Part shown: one piece after another, positions 7,409 to 30,678 of the stretch | Position numbering within the stretch: the first letter of the stretch is position 1 | Layout of the letters: each line of letters opens with the position of its first letter | Assembly (NCBI RefSeq): GCF_914271545.1 | Contig: NZ_CAJZAH010000003.1 | Span: forward strand, 372,001 to 436,000 | Reading direction: 5' to 3' | From: Cupriavidus respiraculi | GTDB lineage: Bacteria > Pseudomonadota > Gammaproteobacteria > Burkholderiales > Burkholderiaceae | DNA length: 64,000 nucleotides | Program-made: the position numbers and the translations under genes | Notes under the pieces: model-generated | Database searches by the model: none | What the model was told of the DNA's origin: nothing | Seen by the model: only the letters and a program-made list of their open reading frames with translations

Positions 7409-8473
7409 TTGCCACAAATACTCGTTACCGGAGGCGCCGGATTCATCGGCGCCAACTTCGTTCTGGACTGGCTGCGCGATGGCGATGCCGACGGCATCGT
7501 CAATGTCGACAAGCTCACCTACGCTGGCAACCTCAAGACGCTTGCCTCACTGGAAGGCGACGCACGGCACACCTTCTCGCGGACGGATATCTGCGACCGC
7601 GCGGCGCTGGACCAGTTGTTCGCCATGCATCAGCCTCGCGCGGTGGTGCATTTCGCGGCGGAAAGCCATGTCGACCGGTCGATCCATGGTCCCGGCGACT
7701 TCATCCAGACCAATATCGTCGGCACCTTCACACTGCTGGAGGCGGTGCGGGCCTACTGGTCGGGCCTTGACGACACGCGCAAGACCAGCTTCCGCTTTCT
7801 GCATGTCTCCACCGACGAAGTGTTCGGCTCCCTGGGGCCGAACGATGCTCAGTTCTCGGAGACCACACCCTACGCGCCCAATAGCCCATATTCGGCGTCC
7901 AAGGCGGCCTCCGATCATCTGGTCCGCGCCTACCATCACACCTACGGGCTGCCGGTGGTCACTACGAACTGTTCAAACAACTACGGTCCGTACCATTTCC
8001 CCGAAAAGCTCATTCCGCTGGTCATCTCGAATGCCCTCGGCGGTAAGCCGCTGCCGGTCTATGGCGACGGCCTGAATGTCCGTGACTGGCTGTATGTGGG
8101 CGACCACTGCGCCGCCATCCGAGAGGTGCTCGCGCGCGGGCGGCTTGGGGAGACATACAACGTCGGTGGCTGGAACGAGAAGACCAACCTCGAGGTCGTC
8201 CACACCATCTGCGATCTGCTCGACGAACTGCGGCCGAAGGCGGCCGGTTCCTACCGGGACCAGATCACCTTCGTCAAGGACCGGCCCGGGCACGACCGCC
8301 GCTACGCCATCGACGCGCGCAAGCTGGAACGCGAGCTCGGATGGAAGCCGGCGGAGACCTTCGAAAGCGGTCTGCGCAAGACCGTTCAGTGGTATCTGGA
8401 CAATCAGGCGTGGGTGCAGGACGTTATGTCGGGGGAATACCGGAATTGGGTGGCGAAGCAATATGCCGCGTAA
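7409..8473 (+). CDS. rfbB: dTDP-glucose 4,6-dehydratase
   Basis: Second step of dTDP-L-rhamnose synthesis: dTDP-glucose to dTDP-4-keto-6-deoxyglucose. Extended SDR of 354 residues with the NAD-binding TGGAGFIG near residues 7-14, catalytic Thr135-Asp136-Glu137 (STDEVFG) and Tyr161-x3-Lys165. Translation appears to start at TTG (7409) preceded by AGGCAGGGAG; no ATG fits, since the Rossmann motif begins four residues later. First gene of the rfbBDAC set; its end overlaps rfbD by 11 bases. Confidence 0.95.
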
Positions 8474-9377
8474 GCTATCGCGTACTCCGACCATTCTTGT
8501 AACTGGAAGCAACGGGCAGGTCGGCTTCGAACTGCGCCGCAGCCTTGCTCCGCTGGGCCGGGTCATTGCGCTGGACAGAGGCAAATGCGATCTGTCCGAT
8601 GTCGACCAGCTTCGCCGGGTTGTGCGCGATGCGAAGCCGGACGTCATCGTCAATCCCGCGGCCTACACCGCCGTCGATAAGGCGGAGACGGAGCGCGATC
8701 TCGCGTTCGCGATCAACGCCACAAGTGTCGGTGTGTTGGCCGAAGAGGCGAAAGCACTGGGCAGCCTGCTGGTTCATTACTCGACCGACTACGTATACGA
8801 CGGCCGAAAGGACAGTCCCTACGTCGAGAGCGACGAGGTCAATCCGCAGTCGGTCTATGGCGCAAGCAAGCTGGCCGGGGAGCAGGCCATCGTGGCGAGC
8901 GGCGCGGCCGCGCTTGTATTGCGCACTTGCTGGGTGGCTGGCGCGCACGGCGGTAATTTCGCTAAGACGATGCTGCGCCTTGCGCGCGAGCGCGACACCC
9001 TTCGGGTCATCGATGATCAGCTCGGGGCGCCCACCACGGCCGCCTTGATCGCCGATGTTACGGCACAGATCGTGGGACGCCGGTGGCTCGAAGCAAAGGA
9101 CGAGTTCCCGGGAGGTGTGTACCACCTCGCAGCAGACGGCTTTACCTCCTGGCACGGCTATGCCGTCGAACTTCTCACGTACGCGCAGCAACATGGCGAA
9201 GCGTTCAAGGTCGATCCAGCTCAGGTCGAAGCGATCCCCACATCGGCTTACCCCCTGCCCGCACCGCGTCCCGCCAATTCGCGTCTGAACACGGAAAAGC
9301 TCCGGCAGACCTTCGACATTTACCTGCCGGACTGGCAGACGGGCGTGCATCACTTGCTCGACCAGATCCTGAGCTGA
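8463..9377 (+). CDS. rfbD: dTDP-4-dehydrorhamnose reductase
   Basis: Last step of dTDP-L-rhamnose synthesis: NAD(P)H-dependent reduction of dTDP-4-keto-L-rhamnose. The 304-residue SDR has [12 protein letters not shown] at the N-terminus, [10 protein letters not shown], and Tyr132-x3-Lys136 (YGASKLAGE). The ATG at 8463 lies inside the end of rfbB, and a longer in-frame reading from 8076 is only overlap with rfbB. The C-terminal substrate-binding part includes [12 protein letters not shown], typical of RmlD. Confidence 0.93.
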
Positions 9378-9388
9378 AAGGGTTTCCC

Positions 9389-10267
9389 ATGCGCAAAGGC
9401 ATTATCTTGGCCGGAGGTTCCGGCACCCGTCTCTATCCGATCACGCGCTCCGTATCCAAGCAATTGCTGCCTGTATACGACAAGCCGATGATTTATTACC
9501 CGCTGTCGACGCTGATGCTCGCGGGGATTCGGGACATTCTTATCATTTCGACGCCGGAAGACACCCCGCGCTTCTCCGCCATGTTGGGCGATGGCAATAA
9601 GTGGGGTATCAATCTGCAGTATGCCGTGCAGCCTTCGCCCGACGGCCTCGCCCAGGCATTCGTCATCGGCCGCGACTTCGTGGGCAACGATCCGTCCGCG
9701 CTCATCCTCGGTGACAACATTTTCCATGGCCACGACCTGGTGAGCCAGTTGCACCGGTCCGCCCGGAAGGAGAAGGGAGCGACCGTTTTTGCATATCACG
9801 TGCACGATCCGGAGCGCTACGGGGTGGTCGAATTCGACGACAGCTTCCGTGCTGTCTCGATCGAAGAGAAGCCGGCCAAGCCGCGTTCGCACTACGCCGT
9901 GACAGGCCTGTATTTCTACGACAACCAGGTTTGCGACATTGCAGCCGATATCAAGCCTTCGGCACGCGGGGAATTCGAGATCACCGACGTCAACAAGCGC
10001 TATCTTGAAATGGGGCAGCTTGACGTCGAAATCATGGGTCGCGGTTACGCATGGCTGGACACGGGCACCCATGATTCGCTGCTGGAGGCGGCGACCTTCA
10101 TCGCTACGCTGCAGAACAGGCAGGGTCTGATGGTGGCTTGCCCGGAAGAAATTGCCTATCGCAGCAAGTGGATTACGGCAGATCAAGTGGCTGAACTGGC
10201 GCGGCCCCTGGCGAAGAATGGATACGGCAAGTATCTGCAGCATATCGTCGGAGAAATCATCAAATGA
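9389..10267 (+). CDS. rfbA: Glucose-1-phosphate thymidylyltransferase
   Basis: First step of dTDP-rhamnose synthesis: glucose-1-phosphate plus dTTP gives dTDP-glucose. The 292-residue nucleotidyltransferase has the signature [11 protein letters not shown] (residues 9-19), KPMIYYPLS and LGDNIFHG. The RfbA C-terminal helix region [13 protein letters not shown] is present. The start at 9389 lies 11 bases after rfbD; AAAGGG at 9378-9383 can serve as ribosome binding site. The stop overlaps the rfbC start (ATGA). Confidence 0.96.
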
Positions 10268-10815
10268 GTCTCACCGTCATTCGTACGGCGCTGCCGGAAG
10301 TACTGATCCTGGAGCCAAAGGTATTTGGCGACGATCGTGGATTCTTCATGGAGAGCTTCAACGCCGCGGTCTTTGCCGAGGCAACAGGCGTAGAACGGGA
10401 GTTCGTGCAGGACAACCATTCCCGTTCCGCGCGCAACGTGTTGCGCGGTCTGCATTACCAGATCCAGAATCCCCAAGGCAAGCTGGTCCGCGTGGTGTCT
10501 GGGGAGGTACTTGACGTGGCCGTCGACATGCGGCGTTCGTCGTCCAACTTCGGCAAATGGGTCGGAGTGCGACTGTCGGGCGAAAACAAGCGCCAACTCT
10601 GGGTGCCGGAGGGCTTTGCCCACGGTTTCGTGGTGCTATCCGAATCGGCGGATTTCCTTTACAAGACGACCGACTACTACAACCCATCAGCGGAACGCAG
10701 CGTGCTGTGGTGCGATCCCGCGATCGGCATCGACTGGCAGATTACAGGTGAGCCGCTGCTCGCCCAAAAAGACCGGCAGGCAGTTACGCTCGACCAGGCT
10801 GAGTGCTTCGCGTAA
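10264..10815 (+). CDS. rfbC: dTDP-4-dehydrorhamnose 3,5-epimerase
   Basis: Third step of dTDP-L-rhamnose synthesis. Cupin-fold epimerase of 183 residues with the expected FMESFN, QDNHSRS (His52), GLHYQ (His64) and PEGFAHGF motifs. It completes a full rfbBDAC set, so the locus should supply dTDP-L-rhamnose to the rhamnosyltransferases downstream. Translational coupling to rfbA by a 4-base overlap. Confidence 0.96.
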
Positions 10816-10924
10816 GTCGGTCGCATGGCCAGTATTGGGCATGCCAGGCGCGACTCCGCTTTGATTTTGGGGGCTGGCCGCGGACATCGTGTCCGGGACA
10901 CGCGTCGAGTCACAAAGGTCTCTA

Positions 10925-11746
10925 ATGAAACACTTCAGTATTAGTCCGGCCGCCATGATTGGCTCGCTGGTACGCAACCGGAACCTGGTTTTAGAACTCG
11001 CTTGGCGGGAAACCGTGGGCCGTTACAAGGGATCCGTCATGGGCGTGTTGTGGTCGCTCATCATCCCGCTATTGATGCTGGGCATCTACACCTTCGTCTT
11101 CAGCGAAATCTTTGTATCGCGTTGGGGGGCTACTGTCGCGCCTTCCAAGGCCACATTCGCCGTCATCTTGTTCGCGGGCCTCATCATCTTCAACGTATTC
11201 AGCGAGTGTCTGGTGAAGGCGCCCAATGTGGTGCTGTCAAATGTCAACTTCGTGAAAAAGGTAATTTTTCCGCTCGAAATTTTGCCGTGCGTGACGGTGC
11301 TGTCCGCACTGTTCCATGCGGTGGTCAGCGTCGGCGTGCTGCTGGTCTTTGAATGGATCAGCATGGGCTCGGTGCCGGCGACTGCGCTCTTTGCACCGGT
11401 GGTGATGGTCCCCGTCGTGTTGCTGTTGCTCGGACTGACCTGGGGCCTTGCCGCGATCGGGGTGTACCTGCGAGACGTGGGGCAGACCGTCGGTATCGTC
11501 GTCACCGGCCTGATGTTCGTTTCGCCTATTTTCTTTCCGGTAAGCTCGTTTCCCGAGCGCTGGCGCATCCTGGCGGACCTCAACCCACTGACGTTCCCCA
11601 TCGAGCAGATGCGAAGTGTGCTGGTGATCGGCAGCCCGCTGGAGTGGGACGGATGGTTGCGTTATTTGGCCTTCACGGCCGCGGTGGCCTGGATCGGTTT
11701 CGCCGCGTTCCAGAAATCTCGGAGGGGGTTCGCCGATGTCGTCTGA
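10925..11746 (+). CDS. wzm: ABC-2 type polysaccharide export permease (Wzm)
   Basis: Membrane component of an O-antigen/capsule ABC exporter that moves undecaprenyl-linked glycan across the inner membrane. The 273-residue protein has the family opening LVLELAWRETVGRYKGSVMGVLWSL and about six hydrophobic segments, ending with the conserved NPLTFPIEQMRSVL. An in-frame GTG at 10889 would add 12 residues, but the ATG at 10925 fits the family better. It overlaps wzt by 11 bases. The 109-base spacer after rfbC holds a small inverted repeat (CGTGT...ACACG). Confidence 0.92.
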   Translation: MKHFSISPAAMIGSLVRNRNLVLELAWRETVGRYKGSVMGVLWSLIIPLLMLGIYTFVFSEIFVSRWGATVAPSKATFAVILFAGLIIFNVFSECLVKAPNVVLSNVNFVKKVIFPLEILPCVTVLSALFHAVVSVGVLLVFEWISMGSVPATALFAPVVMVPVVLLLLGLTWGLAAIGVYLRDVGQTVGIVVTGLMFVSPIFFPVSSFPERWRILADLNPLTFPIEQMRSVLVIGSPLEWDGWLRYLAFTAAVAWIGFAAFQKSRRGFADVV

Positions 11747-13169
11747 TCTGGCAATCCGAGTTTCCCACCTGAGCAAGGTATTCCGTACCTACGAACGTCC
11801 GAAGGACAGGCTGATGGAAGGTCTGTACGGCCTTGCCGCTCGGACTTGCCCCGTTCCAGCGCTGAAGGCAAAACTGCGCGGCCGCGCCGAGAAGTGCTCG
11901 CGCAAGTTCTGGGCGCTGAACGACGTGTCCTTCGAAATCCCTCGCGGTCAAACCGTTGGCATCGTCGGCCGAAACGGTTCAGGCAAGAGCACGTTGCTCC
12001 AGATCATCTGTGGCACGCTCGCGCCTACCGCCGGAGAGGCCGAATTCAGCGGCAGGGTGGCCGCGCTACTGGAACTGGGCTCCGGCTTCAATCCCGAGTT
12101 CACGGGCCGCGAGAACGTGTTCCTCAACGGCCAACTGTACGGTCTGACACGCAAGCAGATCGAGGAGCGATTCGACCAGATCGTTGCCTTCGCCGATATT
12201 GGTGACTTTGTCGGACAGCCAGTCAAGACGTATTCCAGCGGCATGCTGGTGCGGTTGGCTTTCGCTGTCATCGCGCACGTCGATGCGGACGTACTGATTG
12301 TCGATGAGGCGCTGGCTGTTGGGGATGCGTTCTTCACCCAGAAGTGCATGCGCTTCCTGCGCAAGTTCATGGAGACCGGCACCATTCTGTTCGTCAGTCA
12401 CGATACGGCGTCGGTCAAGAGCCTGTGTTCGCATGCGATCTGGCTCGAGCATGGCCAGGTGCTCATGGCGGGCGCTCCCAAGGACGTTTGCGACGCCTAC
12501 CTTGAAGCCTTCTACGAGGCCCAACAGGGCAAGAGTACGACCACACGGCTAAAGGTGCAGGCTAAGCCGCAGACGCCGGCGGAGGAAACGCGCGACCAGC
12601 GACTCAAGTTCGTCAACCAGACGACCTTGCGCAACGATCTGCAATTGTTCGAGTTTGATCCGAATGCCAGCTCGTTCGGCCTCGGCGATGCCCAAATCAC
12701 AGACGTGCGCTTCTTTGACGAGGACGGTGCACCTCTGTCATGGGTCGTCGGCGGCGAGACGGTTGTCATTTCTATTACCGCCGTTGCACACAAGCCGCTG
12801 CAATCGCCAATCATCGGCTTCTATGTGAAGGACCGGTTGGGCCAGACACTGTTCGGCGACAACACCTATTTCACTTATCACGACGCCGCGGTGCAATGCG
12901 CGGCGGGCGGCGAACTCGAGGCGCGCTTCCACTTCCAGATGCCAATCCTCCCGAAGGGGGATTACTCGATCTGCGTGGCGATCGCCCAAGGTACGCAGGA
13001 TGTCCATACGCAATTGCATTGGATTCACGATGCACTGCTCTTCACGTCGTCGTCGTCGAGCGTGTCCACCGGTCTGGTGGGCATCCCGATGCGCCATATA
13101 GAGATGGCCGCCAGGCCCGCGTGCCCCGACGTTCCCGCGGACGTGGAGCCGCTGCGCGTCCAGCGCTGA
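11736..13169 (+). CDS. wzt: ABC transporter ATP-binding protein with C-terminal glycan-recognition domain (Wzt)
   Basis: Nucleotide-binding half of the O-polysaccharide exporter, 477 residues. Walker A GRNGSGKST begins at residue 78, the signature YSSGM at about 166 and Walker B VLIVDEAL at about 186; VSHDT is the H-loop. Residues from about 310 onward form an extra beta-rich domain (DVRFFDEDGAP, GFYVKDRLGQTLFGDNT, DYSICVAIAQGTQ). This is typical of Wzt proteins that bind the modified non-reducing end of a finished chain. It implies the exported glycan carries a terminal cap, consistent with the methyltransferase domain in the next gene. Confidence 0.93.
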   Translation: MSSDLAIRVSHLSKVFRTYERPKDRLMEGLYGLAARTCPVPALKAKLRGRAEKCSRKFWALNDVSFEIPRGQTVGIVGRNGSGKSTLLQIICGTLAPTAGEAEFSGRVAALLELGSGFNPEFTGRENVFLNGQLYGLTRKQIEERFDQIVAFADIGDFVGQPVKTYSSGMLVRLAFAVIAHVDADVLIVDEALAVGDAFFTQKCMRFLRKFMETGTILFVSHDTASVKSLCSHAIWLEHGQVLMAGAPKDVCDAYLEAFYEAQQGKSTTTRLKVQAKPQTPAEETRDQRLKFVNQTTLRNDLQLFEFDPNASSFGLGDAQITDVRFFDEDGAPLSWVVGGETVVISITAVAHKPLQSPIIGFYVKDRLGQTLFGDNTYFTYHDAAVQCAAGGELEARFHFQMPILPKGDYSICVAIAQGTQDVHTQLHWIHDALLFTSSSSSVSTGLVGIPMRHIEMAARPACPDVPADVEPLRVQR

Positions 13170-13189
13170 CCGAACTTTCATACTGACAC

Positions 13190-16100
13190 ATGCATTCGTT
13201 CAACCCCCTGCAATTTCCTGGAAGCTTCGATCGGCCCATCTACCTGTCGGGAAAGAGCGCGTGGATCGAGCACATACCATTCGCGTTCGCGCTCATAGAA
13301 ATGCTGAAGCCACGCGTGCTGGTCGAGCTGGGCACGCACTATGGCGATTCGTACTGCGCGTTCTGTCAGGCCATCAAGCAGCAACGTTTGGAATCTCGCG
13401 CGTTCGCTGTCGATACGTGGCAGGGCGACGAACACGCCGGCTTTTATGGGAATCAGGTGCTTGGACAGGTGCGGCAGGCCCACGACGCTGAGTACAGCTA
13501 TTTCTCGCGTCTGGTGCAGGCCACGTTCGATGAGGCAGCTGCGAACTTCGGACCCGATAGCATCGACCTTTTGCATATCGATGGTCTGCACAGCTACGAA
13601 GCCGTCAAACATGACTTCCTGACGTGGAAAGACAAGCTGTCCGAAAGGGCGGTGGTCTTGTTCCATGACACGAATGTCCGCGAGCGCGACTTTGGCGTGT
13701 GGAAACTGTGGGAAGAACTGTCGGCTCAGTATCCGCACTTCGAGTTTGCGCACGGTCACGGGCTGGGTGTGCTGGCAGTAGGCCCGCAGGCCCGCACCCT
13801 GATTGCGCCATTGGTCGATGCCGACGCCGAAGGGCGGACCCGCATCGCCAAGTTTTTCGCTGAACTCGGCTATCGGCTTACCCGAGAGCAGCAGCTCGAG
13901 GCCGGCATGGCGGCGCAGCAAAGCCAGATCGGGGAAGTGCACAACGCGTTGAACGCCTCGGAGGCGCGCAATAGAGAGCTGGAGAACCGCATCAGGGAAC
14001 TGGATGCGAGCATTCACGACCTGGATGAAGCTTTGACCGGGCGTCAGCACGAGATCGAAGTCGTCGCGCAGCATGCGGAAGAGGTTATTGCGGAACAGCG
14101 TCGGGAAATGGACGAGCATGACCATGAACTTCACGATCAGGTCAACGCTCTGCAGGCTGAGTTGGACGGTGCGAATCGCCGGCTGCATGAAATCTATTCG
14201 TCGCGAATCTGGCGCTTGACGTTCCCCTGGCGGGCGTTGGGTCACTACTCGAGGACTTACCGCAACCGCGCGCGCAAGGTTCTTGCGGCGAAGGAGGCGA
14301 TGGGCGGCTGGGATAAGCTGGGTCATGCCGCCTATCGCGTGCTCCGCACCGAAGGTGCGGGGGGGCTTTTCAGGAAGGCCCGCAGCTTCGGCAATGCCGC
14401 ATACGCGACAGCCGCAGGTTTCGACCCGATTGCGCTGCGCACGAAAGCAGCGCTGGAAGAAATCGCGAGCCGCTTGGCGGGTCCCGCGGCCCAGACGACC
14501 GAGGTCGTTGCCGGCCCCCGGATCTCGATCTTGATGCCGGTGTACAAAGTGCCGGTGAAGCTGCTGAAGGCCGCTATCGACTCGGTGTTGGCGCAGAACT
14601 ATGCCGATTGGGAGTTGTGCATCGCGGATGACAAGTCGGATGACCACGAGATCGCGTCGGTGCTGCGAGCCTACGCCAACGCCGACCGGCGAATCAAGGT
14701 CGTGTTTTCAGAGGTCAACGGTGGCATTTCGCACGCCACCAATCTGGCGCTGCAACAGGCTACCGGCGAATTCGTCGGTCTGCTCGACAACGACGATGTG
14801 CTGACCAACGATGCGTTGTGGGCGGTCGCGCGCAAGCTGGCTGAGGATCCGGCCATTGACGTGGTCTATTCCGACGAGTGCAAGACCGACGAGGCTGGGC
14901 GGCCGGTGGAGATTTTCACCAAGCCAGACTGGGATCCGATGCTGTTGCTCAACTGCATGTACATCGGCCACTTCGGTGTTTATCGCAAATCGCTGGTTGA
15001 AGCTGTCGGTGGGTTCCGTTCGCAGTTCGATTTCTCGCAGGACTATGACCTGGCGCTGCGCGTGACGGAAAGGGCCAGACGCGTCGCCCACATCGAGCGC
15101 GTCTTGTACGGCTGGAGAATGATCGCCTCGTCCGCAGCAGCGGGTGGCAAACCGCACGCGCGCGTCACGAATCTCGCCGCACTGCAGGATGCCATCGATC
15201 GGAGGGGGTGGAACGGCAGAGCCGAGGCGCTGCCGACGGCAAACCGCGCGCACCGGGACCCCGCTCAATTTACCCAACTGGTCTCGGTGATCGTGCCCTC
15301 GGACAACCAGGCCAATATCGAAGCCACCATTGAATCTCTGGGAGAGTCGACCTACCGGAATTTCGAGACGATCATCGTCACGAATTCACGTATTGTCGAG
15401 GCGCTGCGGGGCAAGGTGGATCCCACGCGCGTGCGTTTCGCGCCGTACGACAAGCCGTACAATTTTTCCGACAAGTGCAATGCGGGCGCGAAGATCGCTA
15501 CCGGCGCATTCTTCGTCTTCTTCAACGACGATGTGCGGGTGATTTCGCCGGACTGGATTGAATCGACGCTCGAATATCTGACCCTTGACCGAGTAGGCGT
15601 CGTGGGTCCCAAGCTGTTGTACGAGAATGGAACGATCCAGCATGCCGGCATGGTAACCGGCGTCCGGCGCCTGGTCGGCACGGCATTCCACGCGCTGCCG
15701 GATGACACCGCGAAGCACTATCAATTCGCACAATCGGTACGGCAGGTTTCGCTGATCTGCGGCGCATGCCTCGCGATCCGCGCCGACGTATTCGGCGCCA
15801 TTGGAGGCTTCGATGCCGTTGACGCGCCTATCAACCATTCCGACGTAGACCTCTGCTTCAAGGTCCGCGAGGCCGGTTACGAGTGCGTCTACACGCCGCA
15901 CGCCAAGCTGCTTCACATCGGCCACATGTCCATCGGCGCCATGGAGAAGGCCCAGAAGAAGGCGGCGACCCGGCGCAAGGACAAGGCGGACATTTATCTG
16001 TTGCGTCGCTGGTCCGCCATGCTCGCGCGCGATCCGTACTTCACGAAGGCCATGCGGGAACTGCTGTTCCACGACTCGCCGGACCACTACGAGGTTTTCG

Positions 16101-17185
16101 CCGCCGAAAGGCCATACCAAGGCAACGGCAAGGACGTCCTGCTGGTGTCGCACGATCTCAGTGAAAGCGGCGCGCCTCGCGTGGTTCTCGAGGTTGCGCA
16201 GTCGTTGAAGGCGTCCGGTCATTTCGTCGTGGTTGTCTCGCCGGAGGACGGGCCGATGCGCCGCGCTTTCCAGCAGCTGGGGATCACGGTGATCGTCGAC
16301 GCGCTGGTGCTCCGCCAACATCCGTCCGTGCTGGATTTCGCGCGCAATTTCGATGCAGTGATCGCCAACACCGCGGTGTCCTTTCCACTGGTGGAGCAGG
16401 TGGCTCCCGTTACGGACGTTTACTGGTACATCCACGAGACCAGCCTGGTGGCCCAACTGTCCCGCGAGCATTCCGGTTTCGACGCCGCAATGAAAAGTGC
16501 GAAGGCGGTGTGGGCCGGTAGCCAGCGCGCCGCGGAGCCGCTGACCGCGCTGCGTCCGGACGTCAGAGTCATCGAGTACGGGCTGGATCCGCTGGCGCTT
16601 CCCCGGGCCAGCAATGGTGCAGGCGACGACCCGGTGGTGATCAGCGTGTTCGGTTCCTATGAACCGCGCAAGGGCCAGGATCTGATGGTGGAGGCGATCC
16701 GCCTGTTGAAACCCGAGCGCCGGGCCCAATGCTCGTTCCGCTTTTTTGGCCGTGTATTGCATGACTCGTTTTTCAAGGTCGTACATAGTCGCGCCAAGGA
16801 CATTCCTCAGATCACGCTTGGGAAGGAGTTGGGATTCGAAAGCTATGTGACCGAACTGGGCGAATCCGATCTCGTGGTCGTGCCGTCTCGCGATGACACG
16901 CTGCCGCTTGTGTCGCTGCACGCGCTGTCGGCGGGCAAGCCCCTGATGTGCACATTGTCGACCGGGACGTCCAAGTATATTGAAGATATGGAGTCGGGCT
17001 TCATCATTCCGGCCGACTCGGCTGAAGCCATTGCGAGGACGCTGGAGTCGTCGTTGGCACGGCGGGATAGCTGGAACGCCATCGGGCACCGCGGGCAGCA
17101 GGTCTTTCAGCAATGCTTCTCGCGCGAGACCTTTACCAATACGATCGTTGCGGCAACGGGCGAGTCGCTGACACCAGCGCCATGA
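13190..17185 (+). CDS. Fused SAM methyltransferase / coiled coil / tandem GT2 / GT4-like glycosyltransferase, 1331 residues
   Basis: Domains in order: a class I methyltransferase-like domain (about 25-220; VELGTHYGDSYCAF, IDLLHIDGLHSYEAV near residue 128, VLFHDT); a heptad-rich coiled coil (about 230-335) ending in SRIWRLTFPWRALG, a motif often found next to glycan-polymerising GT domains; a GT2 domain (about 443-660; ISILMPVYK, DNDD near 532); a second GT2 domain (about 696-960; VSVIVPS, FNDDVR near 777); and a GT4-like domain (about 980-1330; VLLVSHDLSESGAPRV, FGSYEPRKGQDLM). It starts 20 bases after wzt. It probably polymerises and caps the exported O chain. Precedents are WsaE (methyltransferase plus rhamnosyltransferases) and WbdD (methyltransferase with coiled-coil ruler). 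The sugar specificities and the cap are inferred. Confidence 0.82.
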   Translation: MHSFNPLQFPGSFDRPIYLSGKSAWIEHIPFAFALIEMLKPRVLVELGTHYGDSYCAFCQAIKQQRLESRAFAVDTWQGDEHAGFYGNQVLGQVRQAHDAEYSYFSRLVQATFDEAAANFGPDSIDLLHIDGLHSYEAVKHDFLTWKDKLSERAVVLFHDTNVRERDFGVWKLWEELSAQYPHFEFAHGHGLGVLAVGPQARTLIAPLVDADAEGRTRIAKFFAELGYRLTREQQLEAGMAAQQSQIGEVHNALNASEARNRELENRIRELDASIHDLDEALTGRQHEIEVVAQHAEEVIAEQRREMDEHDHELHDQVNALQAELDGANRRLHEIYSSRIWRLTFPWRALGHYSRTYRNRARKVLAAKEAMGGWDKLGHAAYRVLRTEGAGGLFRKARSFGNAAYATAAGFDPIALRTKAALEEIASRLAGPAAQTTEVVAGPRISILMPVYKVPVKLLKAAIDSVLAQNYADWELCIADDKSDDHEIASVLRAYANADRRIKVVFSEVNGGISHATNLALQQATGEFVGLLDNDDVLTNDALWAVARKLAEDPAIDVVYSDECKTDEAGRPVEIFTKPDWDPMLLLNCMYIGHFGVYRKSLVEAVGGFRSQFDFSQDYDLALRVTERARRVAHIERVLYGWRMIASSAAAGGKPHARVTNLAALQDAIDRRGWNGRAEALPTANRAHRDPAQFTQLVSVIVPSDNQANIEATIESLGESTYRNFETIIVTNSRIVEALRGKVDPTRVRFAPYDKPYNFSDKCNAGAKIATGAFFVFFNDDVRVISPDWIESTLEYLTLDRVGVVGPKLLYENGTIQHAGMVTGVRRLVGTAFHALPDDTAKHYQFAQSVRQVSLICGACLAIRADVFGAIGGFDAVDAPINHSDVDLCFKVREAGYECVYTPHAKLLHIGHMSIGAMEKAQKKAATRRKDKADIYLLRRWSAMLARDPYFTKAMRELLFHDSPDHYEVFAAERPYQGNGKDVLLVSHDLSESGAPRVVLEVAQSLKASGHFVVVVSPEDGPMRRAFQQLGITVIVDALVLRQHPSVLDFARNFDAVIANTAVSFPLVEQVAPVTDVYWYIHETSLVAQLSREHSGFDAAMKSAKAVWAGSQRAAEPLTALRPDVRVIEYGLDPLALPRASNGAGDDPVVISVFGSYEPRKGQDLMVEAIRLLKPERRAQCSFRFFGRVLHDSFFKVVHSRAKDIPQITLGKELGFESYVTELGESDLVVVPSRDDTLPLVSLHALSAGKPLMCTLSTGTSKYIEDMESGFIIPADSAEAIARTLESSLARRDSWNAIGHRGQQVFQQCFSRETFTNTIVAATGESLTPAP

Positions 17186-17199
17186 CGCGGAGGGGAACC

Positions 17200-18123
17200 A
17201 TGACCCAGGTTGCAGTCATCGGTGGTAGTGGCTTCATCGGCAAGCCTCTGGTGCGGCAGCTAGCGGAGGCCGGATGCCGGGTGCATGCGCTCGGCATTAC
17301 TCCGGCGGATTGCGCCGATGCCGATCAGCAGGGCGACGCCGTGCGATGGTTCTGCGGCGACTTCCAGGACGAGGCATTGGTGCGCTCCGTGATGGAAGGC
17401 GCTGACACCGTGTTTCACCTCGTTTCGACGACACTGCCGCGCTCCTCGAACGAGGATCCCGTCTATGACATCACCTCTAACGTCGGCGGCACACTGAAAC
17501 TGTTGCGCGTGGCAGTGGAATGCCGGGTCCGCAAGGTGGTCTTCCTGTCGTCAGGCGGGACGATCTACGGTCCGCCGCAGTTCCTTCCAATAACCGAAGA
17601 TCACCCGCTCGAGCCTAACTGCTCGTATGGCGTGGGCAAGATGGCGATCGAGAAGTATCTGCAGCTCTTTCATACCCAGCATGGGCTTGAGTATGCGGTG
17701 GTGCGTTTGTCCAATCCCTTCGGTGCCGGACAACCCCTAGATCGGGCGCAGGGCGCGGTCTCGGTCTTCCTGGACCGCATTCTGCGCAAGGTGCCGATCG
17801 AGATCTGGGGGGACGGCTCGGTCGTGCGCGACTACATCTATATCTCCGATGCGGTCGACGGTATCGTGGCCGCCGCCCGCTACGAGGGTGGACGCGGGAT
17901 TTACAACATCGGCTCCGGCGTGGGGCACTCGTTGAACGAAGTCATCGCCGAAATCGAACGGGTTTCGGGGGAGAAGGCAACGGTGGTGTACCAGCCGGCA
18001 CGCGTGTTCGACGTGCCGATCAACGTCTTGTCGATCGCCCGGGCGCAGCAGGAACTTGGGTTTGCGCCACGCGTGCCGTTTCGCGAGGGCATTCGCAAGA
18101 CCCTGGAGTGGTTGCGCGGATGA
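17200..18123 (+). CDS. NAD-dependent epimerase/dehydratase (UDP-glucose 4-epimerase-like)
   Basis: Extended SDR of 307 residues: VIGGSGFIGKPLV at the N-terminus, the active-site serine region LSSGGTIYG, the YGVGK catalytic pair, and VRDYIYISDAVDG near the C-terminus. GalE-like proteins of this type interconvert hexose epimers in glycan loci, but substrate cannot be assigned. The ATG at 17200 has a strong ribosome binding site (GGAGGGGAA). An in-frame reading from 17113 lies within the preceding gene. The stop overlaps the next start (ATGA). Confidence 0.85.
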   Translation: MTQVAVIGGSGFIGKPLVRQLAEAGCRVHALGITPADCADADQQGDAVRWFCGDFQDEALVRSVMEGADTVFHLVSTTLPRSSNEDPVYDITSNVGGTLKLLRVAVECRVRKVVFLSSGGTIYGPPQFLPITEDHPLEPNCSYGVGKMAIEKYLQLFHTQHGLEYAVVRLSNPFGAGQPLDRAQGAVSVFLDRILRKVPIEIWGDGSVVRDYIYISDAVDGIVAAARYEGGRGIYNIGSGVGHSLNEVIAEIERVSGEKATVVYQPARVFDVPINVLSIARAQQELGFAPRVPFREGIRKTLEWLRG

Positions 18124-19079
18124 CCGCTGATCCGCCAGGCATGATGGGCGTGACTTTCCCTTCTGCGATGCCGTCGGTATGCGCGGTCATCGTGAGCTAT
18201 CGCCCGCAGGTCGCGCATGTTGCCGCTTGCGTGGCGCGCCTGCGCGAGTCCGGCAACGGCGTCGTCATTGTCGACAATGGCAGTGACGCGACAACGCTGG
18301 CCGCGTTGGACGCTATCGCTGTAGGCCCGTATGAGCGCGTCTTGCCCATGGGGTCGAACGTCGGAATCGGCGCAGCGCAGAATGCCGGCATTCGCGATGC
18401 ATTGGCGACGGGGTTTCGCTTCGTGATGTTGTTGGACCAAGACAGTCTTCCGGACGAGAACATGGCCGAGCGTCTGCTTGCGGCCCGCCATAGCCTTGTT
18501 CAGGCGGGCCGGCGCGTTGCGGCGGTTGGCCCCGTCACTGTCGACTCGCGCACCGGGGTGCGCGGCGCCTTCGTATGCTTCGACGGCATTCGGATAGGGC
18601 GGCGCCAGTGCACATGTGGACAGCCGGCTGTCCAGGCGGATTTTCTGATTGCCTCCGGCATGTTGATATCCGCGGATGTGTTCGAGGCGGTAGGCGGCAT
18701 GAGTGAAGATATGTTCATCGATCATGTCGATACGGAATGGTGCCTGCGGGCGCGCAGCAAAGGCTATGCACTCTTCGGTGTCTGCGATGCATTGTTGCGG
18801 CATACGCTGGGAGACAGTGTAGTCCGCGTATGGATGGGCCGCTGGCGCGAAGTATCCGTGCATGCGCCGGCGCGTAATTACTATGTATTCCGAAATACCA
18901 TCCTGATGCTTCGCAGGACGCCGATGCCATTTGCCTGGAGAGTCGCGCATGTGTTGCGGCTGGCGCAGTTCTTTGTTTTCTTCGGAGTGATCGGGTCGAG
19001 CCGCTCGGCACGCCTGCGATACATGCTGCGAGGCATCGCGGACGGGCTCCGGAACAGGGGAGGCCCGATTCATGCATGA
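18120..19079 (+). CDS. GT2 family glycosyltransferase, rhamnosyltransferase-like
   Basis: Cytoplasmic GT-A fold enzyme of 319 residues: VIVSYRPQ at the N-terminus, IVDNGSD, the metal-binding MLLDQDSLP, and GGMSEDMFIDHVDTEWCLRA, the pattern of the rhamnosyltransferase group (RfbF/WbbL-like). Context (dTDP-rhamnose genes upstream) supports a rhamnose donor, but this is inference. The ATG at 18120 overlaps the epimerase stop; the 3' end overlaps the next GT by 8 bases. The C-terminus has a hydrophobic patch (LAQFFVFFGVIG). Confidence 0.85.
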   Translation: MTADPPGMMGVTFPSAMPSVCAVIVSYRPQVAHVAACVARLRESGNGVVIVDNGSDATTLAALDAIAVGPYERVLPMGSNVGIGAAQNAGIRDALATGFRFVMLLDQDSLPDENMAERLLAARHSLVQAGRRVAAVGPVTVDSRTGVRGAFVCFDGIRIGRRQCTCGQPAVQADFLIASGMLISADVFEAVGGMSEDMFIDHVDTEWCLRARSKGYALFGVCDALLRHTLGDSVVRVWMGRWREVSVHAPARNYYVFRNTILMLRRTPMPFAWRVAHVLRLAQFFVFFGVIGSSRSARLRYMLRGIADGLRNRGGPIHA

Positions 19080-19845
19080 GATCGGCGCGGCCCAGCCCCA
19101 ACTTTCCGTCTCCATCGTCAGCCACGGCCAGGGCGATCTGGTGATGCCTTTGCTGGAGCAGCTGATCACGCTGTCTAGCGAGACTCCGCTGGAGATTCTG
19201 CTCACGGACAACGTGCTTGCACGTCCCACCCATTTGCCAGCCACGTGGGCGGAGCACGTCCGCGTGTTGCGCAACGCTTCGCCTCTCGGTTTCGGCGCCA
19301 ACCACAACAAGGCCTTCGCGGAATCACGGGCGCCGTTTTTTTGCATTCTGAATCCCGATATCCGCCTTCACGATCACAGCCTGCTCGCCTTGCTGCAATG
19401 CCTTGAACGGAAGCCCGGAGTGGCGGGGCCCAAGGTGATTGCGTCGGACGGCTGCCTGGAGGACAGCGCGCGCAAGGTGCCTGGCGTGCTGCGCCTGGCT
19501 TGGCGGACGCTCTCCGGGCGGCGCCGCGCCGACTACAATGCATCTGTTTCCGAACAGTCCGTCGACTGGGTGGCCGGGATGTGCCTGATGTTCGATCGCG
19601 ACTCCTTCGTTGCGGTGGGCGGATTCACGGAAGACTACAGGCTGTATTGCGAAGACGTCGACGTATGCATACGCATGCATCTCTCCGGGCGTGCGGTGTC
19701 ATGGGTGCAATCCAGTACGGTAATCCACGACGCGCAAAGAGACAGCCATCGAAGCCTGCGCTATCTCGGATGGCATCTCAGCAGTCTTCTGCGGCTGTTC
19801 ACGTCGAAACCTTACTGGAAATATCGGCTCAGCATGCCACATTGA
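19072..19845 (+). CDS. GT2 family glycosyltransferase (WbbL-like)
   Basis: A 257-residue GT2 enzyme with SVSIVSHGQGDLV at the N-terminus, GFGANHNKAF, the DxD-like ILNPDIRL, GVAGPKVI, VDWVAGMCLMFDR and GGFTEDYRLYCEDVDVCIR. This set is characteristic of WbbL-type rhamnosyltransferases. It is translationally coupled to the upstream GT2 gene. Last gene before a 200-base spacer that precedes manC. Confidence 0.84.
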   Translation: MHEIGAAQPQLSVSIVSHGQGDLVMPLLEQLITLSSETPLEILLTDNVLARPTHLPATWAEHVRVLRNASPLGFGANHNKAFAESRAPFFCILNPDIRLHDHSLLALLQCLERKPGVAGPKVIASDGCLEDSARKVPGVLRLAWRTLSGRRRADYNASVSEQSVDWVAGMCLMFDRDSFVAVGGFTEDYRLYCEDVDVCIRMHLSGRAVSWVQSSTVIHDAQRDSHRSLRYLGWHLSSLLRLFTSKPYWKYRLSMPH

Positions 19846-26482: not shown

Positions 26483-29400
26483 ATGAAAAGCCTGTTGTCC
26501 CGCGGCCCGTGGCCGTACACCGACGAGAGTGCCGGCGCTTTCCTGTGCCGGCGGGCTTCGCTTCTGCTCGCGTCGCTGGTGATTGCCGCGTGGTGCGCCT
26601 ATGGCGCCTACCAGCGGATGGACCGCCCGCAGGCTTATTCGGAACTGATCGTCGGCAATATCGCATGGTCGCTGTCCAACAAGTATCACGACTACGCGGC
26701 GCTGTTTGCCTTTGTCTTCGGAACCCTGGCGAGTTTCGTGCTGCTGTGTGCTCTGTCCGCGCGGGTGGCGCGCCAGATCGGATCTCTGGCGGAGGCACGG
26801 TTCCAGGACTTTCTGGCGATGACCGCCGCTCCGGCGGGGCTCTGGCTTGCCGGCCTGCTGACGACGCGGGACACCGACCTTCGAAACTTGGCGGTGGCCG
26901 GAGCGCTGGCAGGGATGGCCGCCGTGTTCGCCTTCGTATTGCAAATGCGCGGGCACGCCTTCTGGCAACAGGATGAAGCGAGGTTTGCGCGCATTCTGCA
27001 GAAGTCGGTGTTGGCGTTGGCAGTCATCGGATTTGGCGTAGCAGCCGTGGGCCTGCTGGTCAGCCGCGGCGGACTTGTCTTTCCCTTCCCCGAGGTGCGC
27101 GCGGACCGAGTGTACTTCCTCGCGGTGCGCGCCATGGTGGTTGGCGCAATCGCCGTGATTGCGCTGGTGCTGACCAGCCGAACGGCTGCCGCGCTGGAGA
27201 GTCGCCTGGATACGCTGATCCTTGGATCGCAGGTGGTATATCCGGCCTATTTCATGATGTTGATTCCGGTGCCCTGGCGTGTCGCTGGCAAGCTTGTGCT
27301 CGGATATCCGCTTAGCACGGCTGGGTTTGCCTTCATCGGCATTTGCGTGCTGTTGACGCTGGCTGCGGTGCTCGCCCGCTTCAGGACCGTGCGCCGCGCG
27401 GCGGTTCCCATGGCGCCATCCGGACTGCTGGTGCTGCCGGCGGCGATCGGGGTTCTGCTGTTCCTCAAGACTTTCCCGGTGGGTGTGGCGTCGATCAGCC
27501 CGGACGATTATCACTTCGGCGAGATGGTGGCGCCCTGGTGGAGTCTGGCGCAACACCATCTCATTCCGTTCTGGGACTACTCTCCCGCGCGCGGTCTGAT
27601 GAACTATCTGCCGGGGTTGACCGCGACGCTGTTCTTCGACGGCACGGCGGCGACCTACGATGCCGCGGCCCCTTTCCTCTATGTCGCGGTGCTGGCAGTT
27701 GCCATGCCCGCGGTCGCAGCCACGATCGGCAGGGGTCCGGCAATCCTTGCGCTGTTTCTTGCTCCGTATATCAACTGGATCAGCGAGATCGATATCGTTG
27801 TTACGGCCTTCCTGTGCGTGCTGTGCACCGGGTATCTGCGCTGGACCGCGGTACGCTGGCTGGCTACAGCATGGTGTGCCGCCCTGGCGTTGCTGCTGTA
27901 TGCGCCAGGCCAGGGCGCGCTGGCGATCGTGTCGGTGACCCCATTGGCGCTTGCCATGCTGTATCGCGCATTCCGCGACGATCGGACGGCGCTGATCCGT
28001 ATGCTGGTTGCGCTCCTTGCCGTTACCGCGTTGCTGGCATGGCTGACGCCATTCGGGCACATGCTGTTGGGCGCGATCCGATATGGCACCGAGCAATCCG
28101 GCGTCAATTCCATTGCCCATGGGGTCAACTGGAGTGCGACGTTCGGCAAGTCCGATGCCAATCCATGGTTGTATGAAGTGGCACGGTGCAGCTGGCTACT
28201 TGTCGCGATGCTCGCCGGGGTTCTGCTGTTGCGGCAGATCATGTTGAAGTCGACCGACGGGCGCGCTGCTGCCTTTGCCTTCCTGGTCCCGATCTTCATT
28301 CTGATGGTTGTCTTCGTGATCCGGGCCGCCGGACGCATCGACCCGAGCGCTGCCACCCGGCTAGGCATCGCAAGCGTTTGGGGATTGGCGCTGTTGCTAC
28401 CGATCCTGATTTTTGCCGTCATGCGGCCGCGTGCGCCTGGCGTGGCAGTACTGCTGTGGGTGTCCGCCGCTGGCCTTATCGTGCCGTATTTCGGCGGTTG
28501 GGACCGTCACTACTTGCGTGCCTTCGAGCCACTCAACGGTCCGGCGGGATTGCCCGGCTACGTGGAAGGGCGCTCCGTGGGCTTGCCGGAACTGGGCAAC
28601 GGCGTTGCCGACGGCGGACACCTGGACCGGCTGATCCGCATCCGGCAGACATTGGACAGGGTGCTGGAACCGCACGAGACCTATCTGGACATGACGGGCC
28701 GGCATGCCACCTATTTCTATTTCAACCGGCGTCCACCGATCGAAACGGGATCGGTCTATAACCTCGTGACCGAGCGCCAGCAGTTGCGCGCGATAGCCTC
28801 GCTGCGGCACGAGCGTCCGCCGGTCGTTCTCATCAGCGCTGACAATATCGTTCACGACGGGGGACCCGCCAGTCTGCGGGCGAACCTGCTGTATCGATTC
28901 CTGATGCTGGAGACGGGCTACAAGGTTGTGACGTTCCGTAACTTGGTATGGCTGATGCGTCCCGACCGCGTGGTACGGCTCGCGCCCGAGTGGCATGCGG
29001 AGATAAGCGAATTGTCCGATGCGCCGTCGAATCCCGTGAACGCTGTTTTCCGCGTTCCGAACCTGCAGTGGATTCCTGCATCGTGGGGTCGTTCCGCGGC
29101 CACGCTGGAGCCGAGAATGCGGACCGTACAGCGTTTGCCGGCAGACGCCACGGCGATATATACCGATGTCGTCCGGGAGCCGGACGGCGCCTATCGCGTA
29201 ACAGGAGCGGACCCGCACATTACCTTCGATATCTCTAGCTGGGGCCTTGCCGGCCGTCAGGCCGGTATCGTCGGCTTCGACTTCTCTTGCGAAGCTGCTG
29301 GTCCGCCACCGGTGATCGAGTTCTACTGGGCGACCGACCGCACAGACGAAAGCGAGGGTACGGTGCTTCGCTTCAACGGTCGGTCCGGGCGTATTCTGGT

Positions 29401-29610: not shown

Positions 29611-30678
29611 ATGTTCAACTTCTTCTGGGTGCCGGCGCTGGCGTTTGTGGTCTGCCTGCTTGGTATTTTTGTGCTACGGCCACTCGCGTCGACGGTAGGC
29701 CTGGTCGACCGTCCAAATGCGCGCAAGCGCCACGATGGCGACGTACCGCTGGTGGGCGGCATTGCCATCACCGTGGCGATCTGGGTCGGGGCACTGTTGT
29801 TTATGCGTACGCAGGGATATTACGTAGCCCTGCTCGCCGGCCTGACGCTCTTGACCATCACTGGCGTCATGGACGATCTACGTGGCATGTCCCCCATCAC
29901 GAAGCTCGTTGTGCAGCTGTTCGCCGCCATTCTGATGACGTCCTGGGGCGGCATATATCTCGCTTCCCTTGGTGATCTCGTCGGGCGCCGGGAAATTGAA
30001 CTGTCCAACTGGGGCATTCCGCTGACGTTGTTCGCAGCCGTTTCCGTCATCAACGCCATGAACATGAGCGATGGGCTGGACGGACTCTGCGGCGGACTGT
30101 CCCTGGTGATTTTCGGCTGGTTCGCCTATCTGGCTGGCGAGATGGGAAATCTTCCTGCGCAACGCATGTGCATCATTCTGTGCGGCGCGTTGGTGGGCTT
30201 TCTGGTATTCAACATGAAGAACCCCTTCCGTGGGCGGATGCGGGTATTCCTCGGCGACGCCGGCAGCCTCATGCTGGGATTCTGCATCGTGTGGTTCGCG
30301 GTCGAGTTATCGCAACGTCAGTACAACAACGGCAATCATGTGCCGCCCGTGGTGATGTTGTGGATCCTGGGTTTCGTGCTGATCGACCTCCTGGCGGTCG
30401 TCATCCGGCGCACGATGAAGGGAAAAAACCCGCTGGCGGCGGACCGCATGCATTTGCATCATGTACTGCTACGTCTGGGACTGGGCCCCGACTCCATCGT
30501 TTGGCTGATGCTCGTTTGCAACGGACTGATGGGGTTGATTGGTGTGTGGGGGTGGAGGGCCGGCCTGTCCGAGCAGACTCTCTTCCTGCTGTTCCTTGCC
30601 ATCGCGGCTGTTCATCTGGTGGTCATGCGCAACGCCTGGCGCGTGATCCGGGTGGGCCGGAAGTTGCTGCGGCGCTGA
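29611..30678 (+). CDS. wecA: Undecaprenyl-phosphate sugar-1-phosphate transferase (WecA/MraY family)
   Basis: Polytopic PNPT-superfamily transferase of 355 residues that primes glycan synthesis by moving a HexNAc-1-phosphate to undecaprenyl phosphate. Motifs: RPNARKRHDGDVPLVGG; Asp88-Asp89 in GVMDDLRGM; NAMNMSDGLDG (Asp154 region); VFLGDAGSLMLGF; and the C-terminal ADRMHLHHVL histidine motif. Likely the initiating enzyme for the ABC-exported O chain. The donor could be GlcNAc, QuiNAc or FucNAc. Ends the plus-strand locus, convergent with the minus operon 33 bases away. Confidence 0.88.
   Translation: MFNFFWVPALAFVVCLLGIFVLRPLASTVGLVDRPNARKRHDGDVPLVGGIAITVAIWVGALLFMRTQGYYVALLAGLTLLTITGVMDDLRGMSPITKLVVQLFAAILMTSWGGIYLASLGDLVGRREIELSNWGIPLTLFAAVSVINAMNMSDGLDGLCGGLSLVIFGWFAYLAGEMGNLPAQRMCIILCGALVGFLVFNMKNPFRGRMRVFLGDAGSLMLGFCIVWFAVELSQRQYNNGNHVPPVVMLWILGFVLIDLLAVVIRRTMKGKNPLAADRMHLHHVLLRLGLGPDSIVWLMLVCNGLMGLIGVWGWRAGLSEQTLFLLFLAIAAVHLVVMRNAWRVIRVGRKLLRR

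What the first reader, a model, noticed from the sequence alone, without database searches (positions are those of the whole stretch)
11736..17185. Possible one-polypeptide polymerase-terminator-ruler for an ABC-exported O chain
The 1331-residue protein fuses a methyltransferase-like domain, a long coiled coil and three glycosyltransferase domains, and lies 20 bases after a wzt that has a C-terminal glycan-recognition domain. In the E. coli O9a system WbdD (methyltransferase, kinase, coiled-coil ruler) stops the WbdA polymerase and Wzt reads the cap; in Geobacillus WsaE fuses methyltransferase with rhamnosyltransferases. Here methyl capping, chain-length measuring and polymerisation appear to be joined in a single chain, with the ruler between cap and polymerase. 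I infer that the coiled-coil length sets chain length.
Basis: partly seen in the sequence, partly recalled or inferred. Interest (0 to 1): 0.78.

Follow-up and report, generated by a model that had tools for sequence, protein, structure and literature searches.

The report
Fused sugar-chain builder, ruler and cap
A soil-type bacterium (probably Cupriavidus) carries one large protein that appears to build a surface sugar chain, measure it with a coiled-coil arm and cap it with a methyl group so that the neighbouring exporter accepts it; the design is a variant of systems already known from Klebsiella and E. coli.

Summary
Window 13190-17185 encodes 1331 aa: a Methyltransf_24 domain with an intact SAM motif, a heptad coiled coil (227-337), a basic segment, then GT2, GT2 and GT4 modules, 20 bases after a wzt with a Wzt_C domain, in an rml-wzm-wzt O-antigen-type cluster. 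Best reading: polymerase, coiled-coil ruler and methyl terminator in one chain, its cap read by Wzt_C. Function is inferred, not shown.

The idea is not new: K. pneumoniae O12 WbbB is a published one-chain version, and O7 ORF6 fuses terminator, coil and two polymerase modules. This is a variant: a kinase-free methyl cap plus three fused GT modules.

New support: the same gene order in Polynucleobacter, Phyllobacterium and a Herpetosiphon MAG; split forms; and a second Polynucleobacter with the same polymerase but a very different methyltransferase and Wzt. Loci with that second Wzt type all have that cap type (8 of 8; 5 new, 2 defined the type, 1 near-copy); none of 31 window-type loci do. This is one evolutionary split, not eight. 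Coil lengths differ between orthologs; DNA repeats found inside coils of relatives have periods of 21 or 42 bp (10 of 10 arrays).

The parts
7409..8473 (+). rmlB, dTDP-glucose 4,6-dehydratase
   Evidence: TIGR01181 510 bits, above cut-off
8490..9377 (+). rmlD, dTDP-4-dehydrorhamnose reductase (start approximate)
   Evidence: TIGR01214 335 bits, above cut-off
9395..10267 (+). rmlA (start approximate)
   Evidence: TIGR01207 520 bits, above cut-off
10264..10815 (+). rmlC
   Evidence: Pfam dTDP_sugar_isom 3e-72
10889..11746 (+). wzm, ABC exporter permease
   Evidence: ABC2_membrane 1e-21
11736..13169 (+). wzt, ABC exporter ATPase with C-terminal Wzt_C domain (12666-13082)
   Evidence: ABC_tran 3e-23, Wzt_C 1e-39
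13190..17185 (+). 1331-aa fusion protein: methyltransferase, coiled coil, GT2, GT2, GT4
13190..13855 (+). Methyltransf_24 domain (aa 1-222), proposed methyl cap enzyme
   Evidence: Pfam 4e-25; E46, L47, G48, H50, G52, S54, D75, D142, H159 invariant in the 18 aligned sequences, window included; nearest solved relative 6g7d
13868..14200 (+). coiled coil (aa 227-337), proposed ruler
   Evidence: heptad periodicity reached by 13 of 20000 shuffles (aa 227-335); register scan
14201..14509 (+). basic post-coil segment (aa 338-440) beginning with S-R-I-W-R-L-T; proposed membrane association
   Evidence: net charge +11 over aa 338-425, amphipathic windows; role inferred
14510..15259 (+). first GT2 module (aa 441-690)
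15260..16114 (+). second GT2 module (aa 691-975)
16115..17182 (+). GT4 module (aa 976-1331)
   Evidence: Glyco_trans_4_5 and Glycos_transf_1; PSRDDTLPLV conserved in four orthologs, window included
18108..19079 (+). stand-alone rhamnosyltransferase, likely adaptor GT
   Evidence: TIGR01556 267 bits, above cut-off
19072..19845 (+). stand-alone GT2, likely adaptor GT
   Evidence: Pfam GT2 27 bits, cut-off 23.3
29611..30678 (+). WecA-like initiating phosphoglycosyltransferase
   Evidence: Glycos_transf_4 2e-37; ECA_wecA 285 bits, below cut-off 326

Best explanation
The protein is a one-chain polymerase-terminator for an ABC-exported, rhamnose-containing O chain. A WecA-like enzyme and the separate GTs start the chain on undecaprenyl phosphate. 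The C-terminal GT2, GT2 and GT4 modules, held at the membrane by the basic segment after the coil, extend it. [quoted passage not shown] The Wzt C domain binds the methylated end and Wzm/Wzt exports the chain. Shown here: domains, SAM motif, heptad pattern, operon, the same gene order with Wzt_C in three other taxa. Inferred: methyl capping, ruler action, membrane anchoring, sugar and linkage specificity.
For: Domains and operon. Same order wzm, wzt+Wzt_C, MT-coil-GT2-GT2-GT4 in Polynucleobacter, Phyllobacterium and a Herpetosiphon MAG. Methyltransf_24 as a separate gene just upstream of the same GT core in two MAGs, in L056 with a short coil-like tail and the W motif. Cap exchange: Polynucleobacter L068 has the same GT core (51-62% identity in the GT2 modules to the four others) but a very different methyltransferase (15-21%), and its Wzt_C is 35-38% identical to the other four against 54-65% among them (NBD 58-66% against 66-76%). 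That Wzt type sits beside that methyltransferase type at 8 of 8 loci and at 0 of 31 window-type loci. Nearest solved methyltransferase by profile is 6g7d, recalled to be MeT1, which methylates the 1-OH of a mycobacterial polysaccharide precursor. Published analogues: WbdD, WbbB, ORF6-O7, WsaE.
Against: The methyltransferase could modify internal sugars. Relatives of the MT-coil protein occur in loci whose exporter ATPase has no Wzt_C (e.g. L029, L034-L037, L043, L044, L069). Among 31 window-type Wzt_C loci 17 have this cap family, 9 another class-I methyltransferase next door and 5 none next door in what was examined, so the C domain does not dictate one enzyme family. Of the 8 loci of the other type, two (L068, L081) defined it and L125 is a near-copy of L081; the nucleotide-binding domain also separates the two Wzt types (support 87), so this is one split, not eight. 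The coil register changes in its last third. [quoted passage not shown]
Confidence: 0.7

Rival explanations
1. The methyltransferase decorates sugars inside the repeat unit; the coil only oligomerises or scaffolds the enzymes, and chain length is set otherwise.
For: Homologous MT-coil proteins occur in loci whose exporter ATPase has no Wzt_C and in a capsule-like E. coli plasmid locus.
Against: All 5 loci found with this GT core next to a Wzt_C-bearing wzt (window, L047, L048, L049, L068) carry a methyltransferase and a coil-like stretch; the cap type changes together with the Wzt type.
Confidence: 0.17
2. The protein caps and polymerises, but the coil is a tether and length is set kinetically by polymerase-to-terminator and export rates.
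For: WsaE methylates independently of chain length in vitro (PMC2943079); the coil has a register break; its length varies widely among orthologs (64 to 123 residues between anchors).
Against: In WbdD, coil insertions and truncations shift modal length (PMC5082667); coil repeats in relatives keep the heptad period.
Confidence: 0.1
3. One of the three GT modules, most likely the GT4 one, makes a side branch or an adaptor linkage, so the polymerase proper is smaller than the fusion (compatible with the best explanation otherwise).
For: The second Glu of the usual EX7E motif is His, Gln, Asn or Asp in the four aligned MT_24-type core proteins (motif recalled). Separate GTs lie downstream. Other relatives have the methyltransferase and two GT2 modules without a GT4 match (L037, L064, L076, L077, L092).
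Against: PSRDDTLPLV is invariant in those four proteins, and a GT4 match follows the two GT2 modules in all 12 core-bearing loci (in L058 partly in a second frame), though that scan used the full-length query.
Confidence: 0.3

Closest known systems
K. pneumoniae / Raoultella O12 WbbB
   Same: terminator, coiled-coil ruler and polymerase in one polypeptide, C-terminal polymerase modules, ABC transporter with a CBM on its nucleotide-binding subunit (PMC11231755)
   Different: cap is beta-Kdo added by a glycosyltransferase; its three GT modules founded other CAZy families (GT99, GT102, GT103; PMC11231755)
K. pneumoniae O7 ORF6
   Same: N-terminal methyltransferase, central coil, C-terminal GT2 modules in one chain; rhamnose-containing chain (PMC11231755)
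   Different: O7 adds a kinase and a CBM-like domain and makes a methyl-phosphate cap; two GT2 modules are fused and a third transferase is separate; no kinase domain found here
E. coli O9a WbdD/WbdA
   Same: methyl-type cap enzyme at the far end of a coil with a membrane-associated region at the other end, cap read by Wzt (PMC5082667, PMC11231755)
   Different: polymerase WbdA is a separate protein; WbdD has a kinase
Geobacillus WsaE
   Same: methyltransferase fused to two rhamnosyltransferases next to wzm-wzt (PMC2943079)
   Different: a further GT (WsaF) is separate; methylation independent of length in vitro; no coil mentioned in the passages read
S. fredii NGR234 protein NGR_RS31785 next to rfbA (taken to be WbgA from recall)
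   Same: same methyltransferase family followed by two related GT2 modules; wbgA is reported as needed for the flavonoid-induced LPS (title cited in PMC3732241)
   Different: no GT4 match; no Wzt_C-bearing wzt in the fetched stretch
PDB 6g7d (recalled: M. hassiacum MeT1)
   Same: nearest solved relative of the methyltransferase domain by profile; MeT1 acts on a polysaccharide end (PMC9883506)
   Different: MeT1 methylates the 1-OH; weak match (7e-4), mainly over 37 residues

Membership tests
coiled-coil chain-terminator/ruler proteins of ABC-dependent glycan export | terminating-type enzyme at one end of an extended coiled coil, polymerase-type modules at the other | tested here: met
   domains; coil (sequence only)
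coiled-coil chain-terminator/ruler proteins of ABC-dependent glycan export | transporter ATPase with a glycan-binding-type C domain | tested here: met
   Wzt_C 1e-39
coiled-coil chain-terminator/ruler proteins of ABC-dependent glycan export | terminal cap on the non-reducing end and coil length setting chain length | not testable with these tools
   needs glycan chemistry
WbdD | methyltransferase plus kinase | tested here: not met
   no kinase family in Pfam (E up to 0.01) or among the 25 best of 42 NCBIfam matches
WbbB (O12) | N-terminal beta-Kdo transferase | tested here: not met
   N-terminus is Methyltransf_24
Methyltransf_24 SAM-dependent methyltransferases | profile match and intact SAM motif | tested here: met
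   89 bits against cut-off 26.3; E-L-G-x-H-x-G-x-S invariant in 18 aligned sequences
ABC-dependent O-antigen cluster | wzm, wzt, nucleotide-sugar genes, WecA-like initiator, GTs | tested here: met

The most novel reading that the evidence does not exclude
The cap enzyme and Wzt form a linked module that can be exchanged on a fixed polymerase chassis, and the coil between cap and polymerase is an evolvable ruler whose length changes by register-keeping DNA repeats (7 or 14 residues per step), so that bacteria tune surface-chain length by repeat gain and loss.
Probability: 0.3. Interest if true: 0.7.

Novelty: new variant of a known kind. Interest (0 to 1): 0.45.

Why it matters
It gives a compact natural test of the molecular-ruler model: orthologs with the same cap and polymerase type but coil spans of 64, 103, 114 and 123 residues, plus a same-genus pair (L049, L068) in which the cap and the Wzt type differ on one polymerase type. 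If the reading is right, chain length and cap chemistry could be predicted from sequence for many ABC-exported glycans.

Tried and rejected
The idea that the fusion is unique was rejected after and PMC11231755. The idea that Wzt_C was exchanged many times independently was rejected: both the NBD tree and the C-domain tree put the 8 loci on one side of a single branch. A strict match between Wzt_C and methyltransferase family was rejected: of 31 window-type Wzt_C loci 17 have the window's methyltransferase family, 9 another class-I methyltransferase next door (L079, L087, L091, L093, L094, L095, L119, L121, L122) and 5 none next door in what was examined (L073, L074, L090, L097, L123); L073 and L074 have methyltransferase genes 3 to 7 kb away, L123 lies at a contig end.

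Permutation test on 23 loci (those with a cap type assigned at that stage; the rest left out): the same-cap minus different-cap difference in C-domain identity was reached by 1 of 5000 label shuffles, after correction for the NBD by 30 of 5000, and NBD identity alone by 9 of 5000; after thinning to 17 loci, 39 and 145 of 5000 for the first two. The Fisher value for 8 of 8 against 0 of 31 (1.6e-8) ignores common descent and is not used as a probability; L068 and L081 were used to build the profiles of that type, and L125 is a near-copy of L081. Four of the 31 (window, L047, L048, L049) built the window-type profile. L123 was left out of the trees but kept in the 31. Twelve loci with distant Wzt_C were not used in the contrast; none had a hit above 100 bits to the methyltransferase profiles searched (Methyltransf_24 and L068 type for all 12, Methyltransf_11 type only for L124). 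No tandem DNA repeat was found in the window's own gene. 16S was not found in the genome, so the genus rests. No held paper was found that ties 6g7d to MeT1.

They moved L122 from none to another methyltransferase. Recounting also corrected the motif count to 11 of 17 and replaced the word unrelated for the L068 methyltransferase, which reaches Pfam's Methyltransf_24 cut-off (28.7 against 26.3 bits).
Full report
What is there. The window holds an O-antigen-type cluster: rmlB, rmlD, rmlA and rmlC (7409-10815), wzm (10889-11746), wzt (11736-13169), the 1331-aa protein (13190-17185), an epimerase-family gene, a rhamnosyltransferase, another GT2, manC, gmd, an fcl-like gene (below its family cut-off) and a WecA-like initiator (29611-30678). 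GC is 59-64% in the 2-kb bins from 8 to 32 kb and 66-71% in the bins on either side (1-8 kb and 32-36 kb), as in an acquired island. The genus is most likely Cupriavidus: a 3.2-kb stretch of the window is 87-88% identical to two C. taiwanensis plasmids of 507 and 578 kb. The 16S gene was not found in the assembly.

The protein. Pfam finds Methyltransf_24, two GT2 modules and a GT4 module in order. The SAM motif and most acidic/His positions are invariant in the 18 aligned sequences. The nearest solved protein to the methyltransferase profile is 6g7d (E 7e-4). I recall it as MeT1 of M. hassiacum; no held paper found here confirms that. MeT1 blocks the 1-OH of a methylmannose polysaccharide precursor (PMC9883506, passages). 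The region 227-335 has a strong heptad pattern: 13 of 20000 shuffles reach it, while each of 11 control windows is reached by at least 116 of 2000. The a/d register is constant over 227-310 and then changes. A basic stretch follows (net +11 over 88 residues) beginning S-R-I-W-R-L-T. A similar W motif was found by pattern after the methyltransferase in 11 of 17 proteins scored; an 18th, L092, could not be scored. Coil periodicity in the 11 was reached by 0 to 131 of 2000 shuffles, weakest in the Phyllobacterium ortholog (131).

Relatives. Of 249 genomes of the same family 17 (own included) have a relative of the N-terminal 447 aa at E up to 1e-20. Of 60 of the same genus only one other matches the N-terminal part, and four match the GT2-GT2 part, at E up to 1e-30. 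One scan of the 84,980-species collection, with two short peptide patterns from the two-sequence alignment, gave 15 loci, 12 of them with the GT2-GT2-GT4 core. Three are full-length fusions directly after wzm and a wzt with Wzt_C: Phyllobacterium myrsinacearum (55%), a Herpetosiphon MAG and Polynucleobacter parvulilacunae. In two MAGs (L051, L056) a Methyltransf_24 protein is the gene just upstream of the core, in L056 ending with a short coil-like stretch and the W motif. L054 has another methyltransferase type in front of the core, and L055 and L057 a CmcI/Methyltransf_24-like one. L050, L052, L053 and L058 show no methyltransferase in what was looked at (only L050 was scanned with Pfam). 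Outside the three fusions none of these 12 loci has a Wzt_C-bearing wzt in the stretch fetched; L051, L052 and L054 have short ATPases a few kb downstream.

A cap exchange. In a second Polynucleobacter (L068) the same core follows wzm-wzt, but the cap is a very different methyltransferase (15-21% identity to the other four; it still reaches Pfam's Methyltransf_24 cut-off, 28.7 against 26.3 bits). GT2 modules stay at 51-62% identity. The Wzt NBD is at 58-66% against 66-76% among the four others, and Wzt_C at 35-38% against 54-65%. I then sampled Wzt_C in both directions. Window-type query: 33 plasmid records (12 fetched, chosen to avoid copies) and 22 of 398 phylum genomes (21 further places fetched). 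L068-type query: 29 plasmid records (3 fetched, one more, L081, already held) and 13 of 369 class genomes (10 places fetched). With the L068-type Wzt_C, 8 of 8 loci have the L068-type methyltransferase next door, fused or free. Two of the 8 defined the type, one is a near-copy, five are new; only L068 has the full window-type GT core, though L115 has related GT2 modules. With the window-type Wzt_C (31 loci, window included) 0 have it; 17 have the window-type methyltransferase, 9 a different class-I methyltransferase next door, 5 none next door in what was examined. Caution: the NBD tree also separates the two Wzt types (support 87; C tree 100), so this is one old split with linkage kept, and the window-type Wzt_C tolerates at least two methyltransferase families. 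The rule therefore is that wzt and cap enzyme stay together while polymerases change; it is not proof that the C domain reads the methyl group.

Coil length. Anchor-to-anchor spans are 114 (window), 103, 123 and 64 residues in the four fusions and 32 in the split L056. Of 45 methyltransferase proteins with a further 40 residues or more in the loci examined, 10 have DNA tandem arrays in the 260 aa after the methyltransferase; 10 of 10 periods are 21 or 42 bp, against 7 of 35 other arrays (period 15 or more) in the same loci (Fisher 6e-6). Against the simple picture, some of the other arrays lie in coil-like proteins and have 33-bp periods (L074, L080), which is 11 residues. In L068 3.4 copies of 42 bp are identical; L048 has 6.3 copies at 86%. 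The window's gene has none. In six closely similar enterobacterial plasmid proteins (94-100% identical where aligned) the only length differences, 96, 43 and 32 residues, in frame, all lie inside the coil. That locus, seen whole in L069, looks like a capsule locus with an ATPase lacking Wzt_C, and those steps are not multiples of seven. Of 5426 E. coli genomes 17 hold a match to the gene (14 over at least 80% of it); the matched spans in 16 of them give six different lengths. This shows natural coil-length variation; an effect on chain length is not shown.

Known systems. [quoted passage not shown] it calls the coil a characteristic marker of the strategy and says the strategy is widespread. 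PMC5082667 (passages) gives the WbdD coil as holding the cap site about 20 nm from the membrane, with insertions and truncations changing modal length. PMC2943079 (passages) gives WsaE. PMC13168486 (passages) reports that an intact methyltransferase with a C-terminal coil is needed for O-methylation in E. coli O101. PMC3732241 (passages) and PMC9883506 (passages) were used as cited above; PMC3482155 (WbdD structure) was seen only in listings. The primary WbdD ruler and WbbB papers and the 2019 survey were not held; the first is known here only as cited, the other two by citation number and recall. Searches listed no paper whose title or abstract is about tandem repeats in such coils (one search listed 10 of 24); that library is only part of the literature.

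Verdict. A well-conserved one-chain polymerase-ruler-terminator candidate; a variant of a known kind, because a kinase-free methyl cap and three GT modules are all in one chain.

Noticed in passing
L108-L112, L069: Closely similar E. coli and Enterobacter plasmid methyltransferase-coil proteins differ in length only by in-frame deletions inside the coil (816, 869, 880, 912 aa); 17 of 5426 E. coli genomes hold a match to the gene.
   Followed up: partly
L068:7044-7187: 3.4 perfect copies of a 42-bp repeat inside a terminator coil, likely unstable in length.
   Followed up: partly
L070, L081, L125, L126: rml-wzm-wzt-terminator O-antigen-like clusters on enterobacterial plasmids, with IS elements nearby; L126 shows only rfbC of the rml genes in the stretch fetched.
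   Followed up: no
window 26483-29548: 1021-aa membrane protein (16 hydrophobic stretches) with no Pfam match up to 1e-5 or NCBIfam match up to 1e-10, between an LPG_synthase_TM-like gene and the wecA-like gene.
   Followed up: no
L054:5048-9916: 1622-aa protein with a different N-terminal methyltransferase, a further region with kinase-like motifs by eye, and the same GT core.
   Followed up: no
L075:10885-11764: 114-bp repeats coding a 38-residue repeat in the protein downstream of wzt, after its coil.
   Followed up: no
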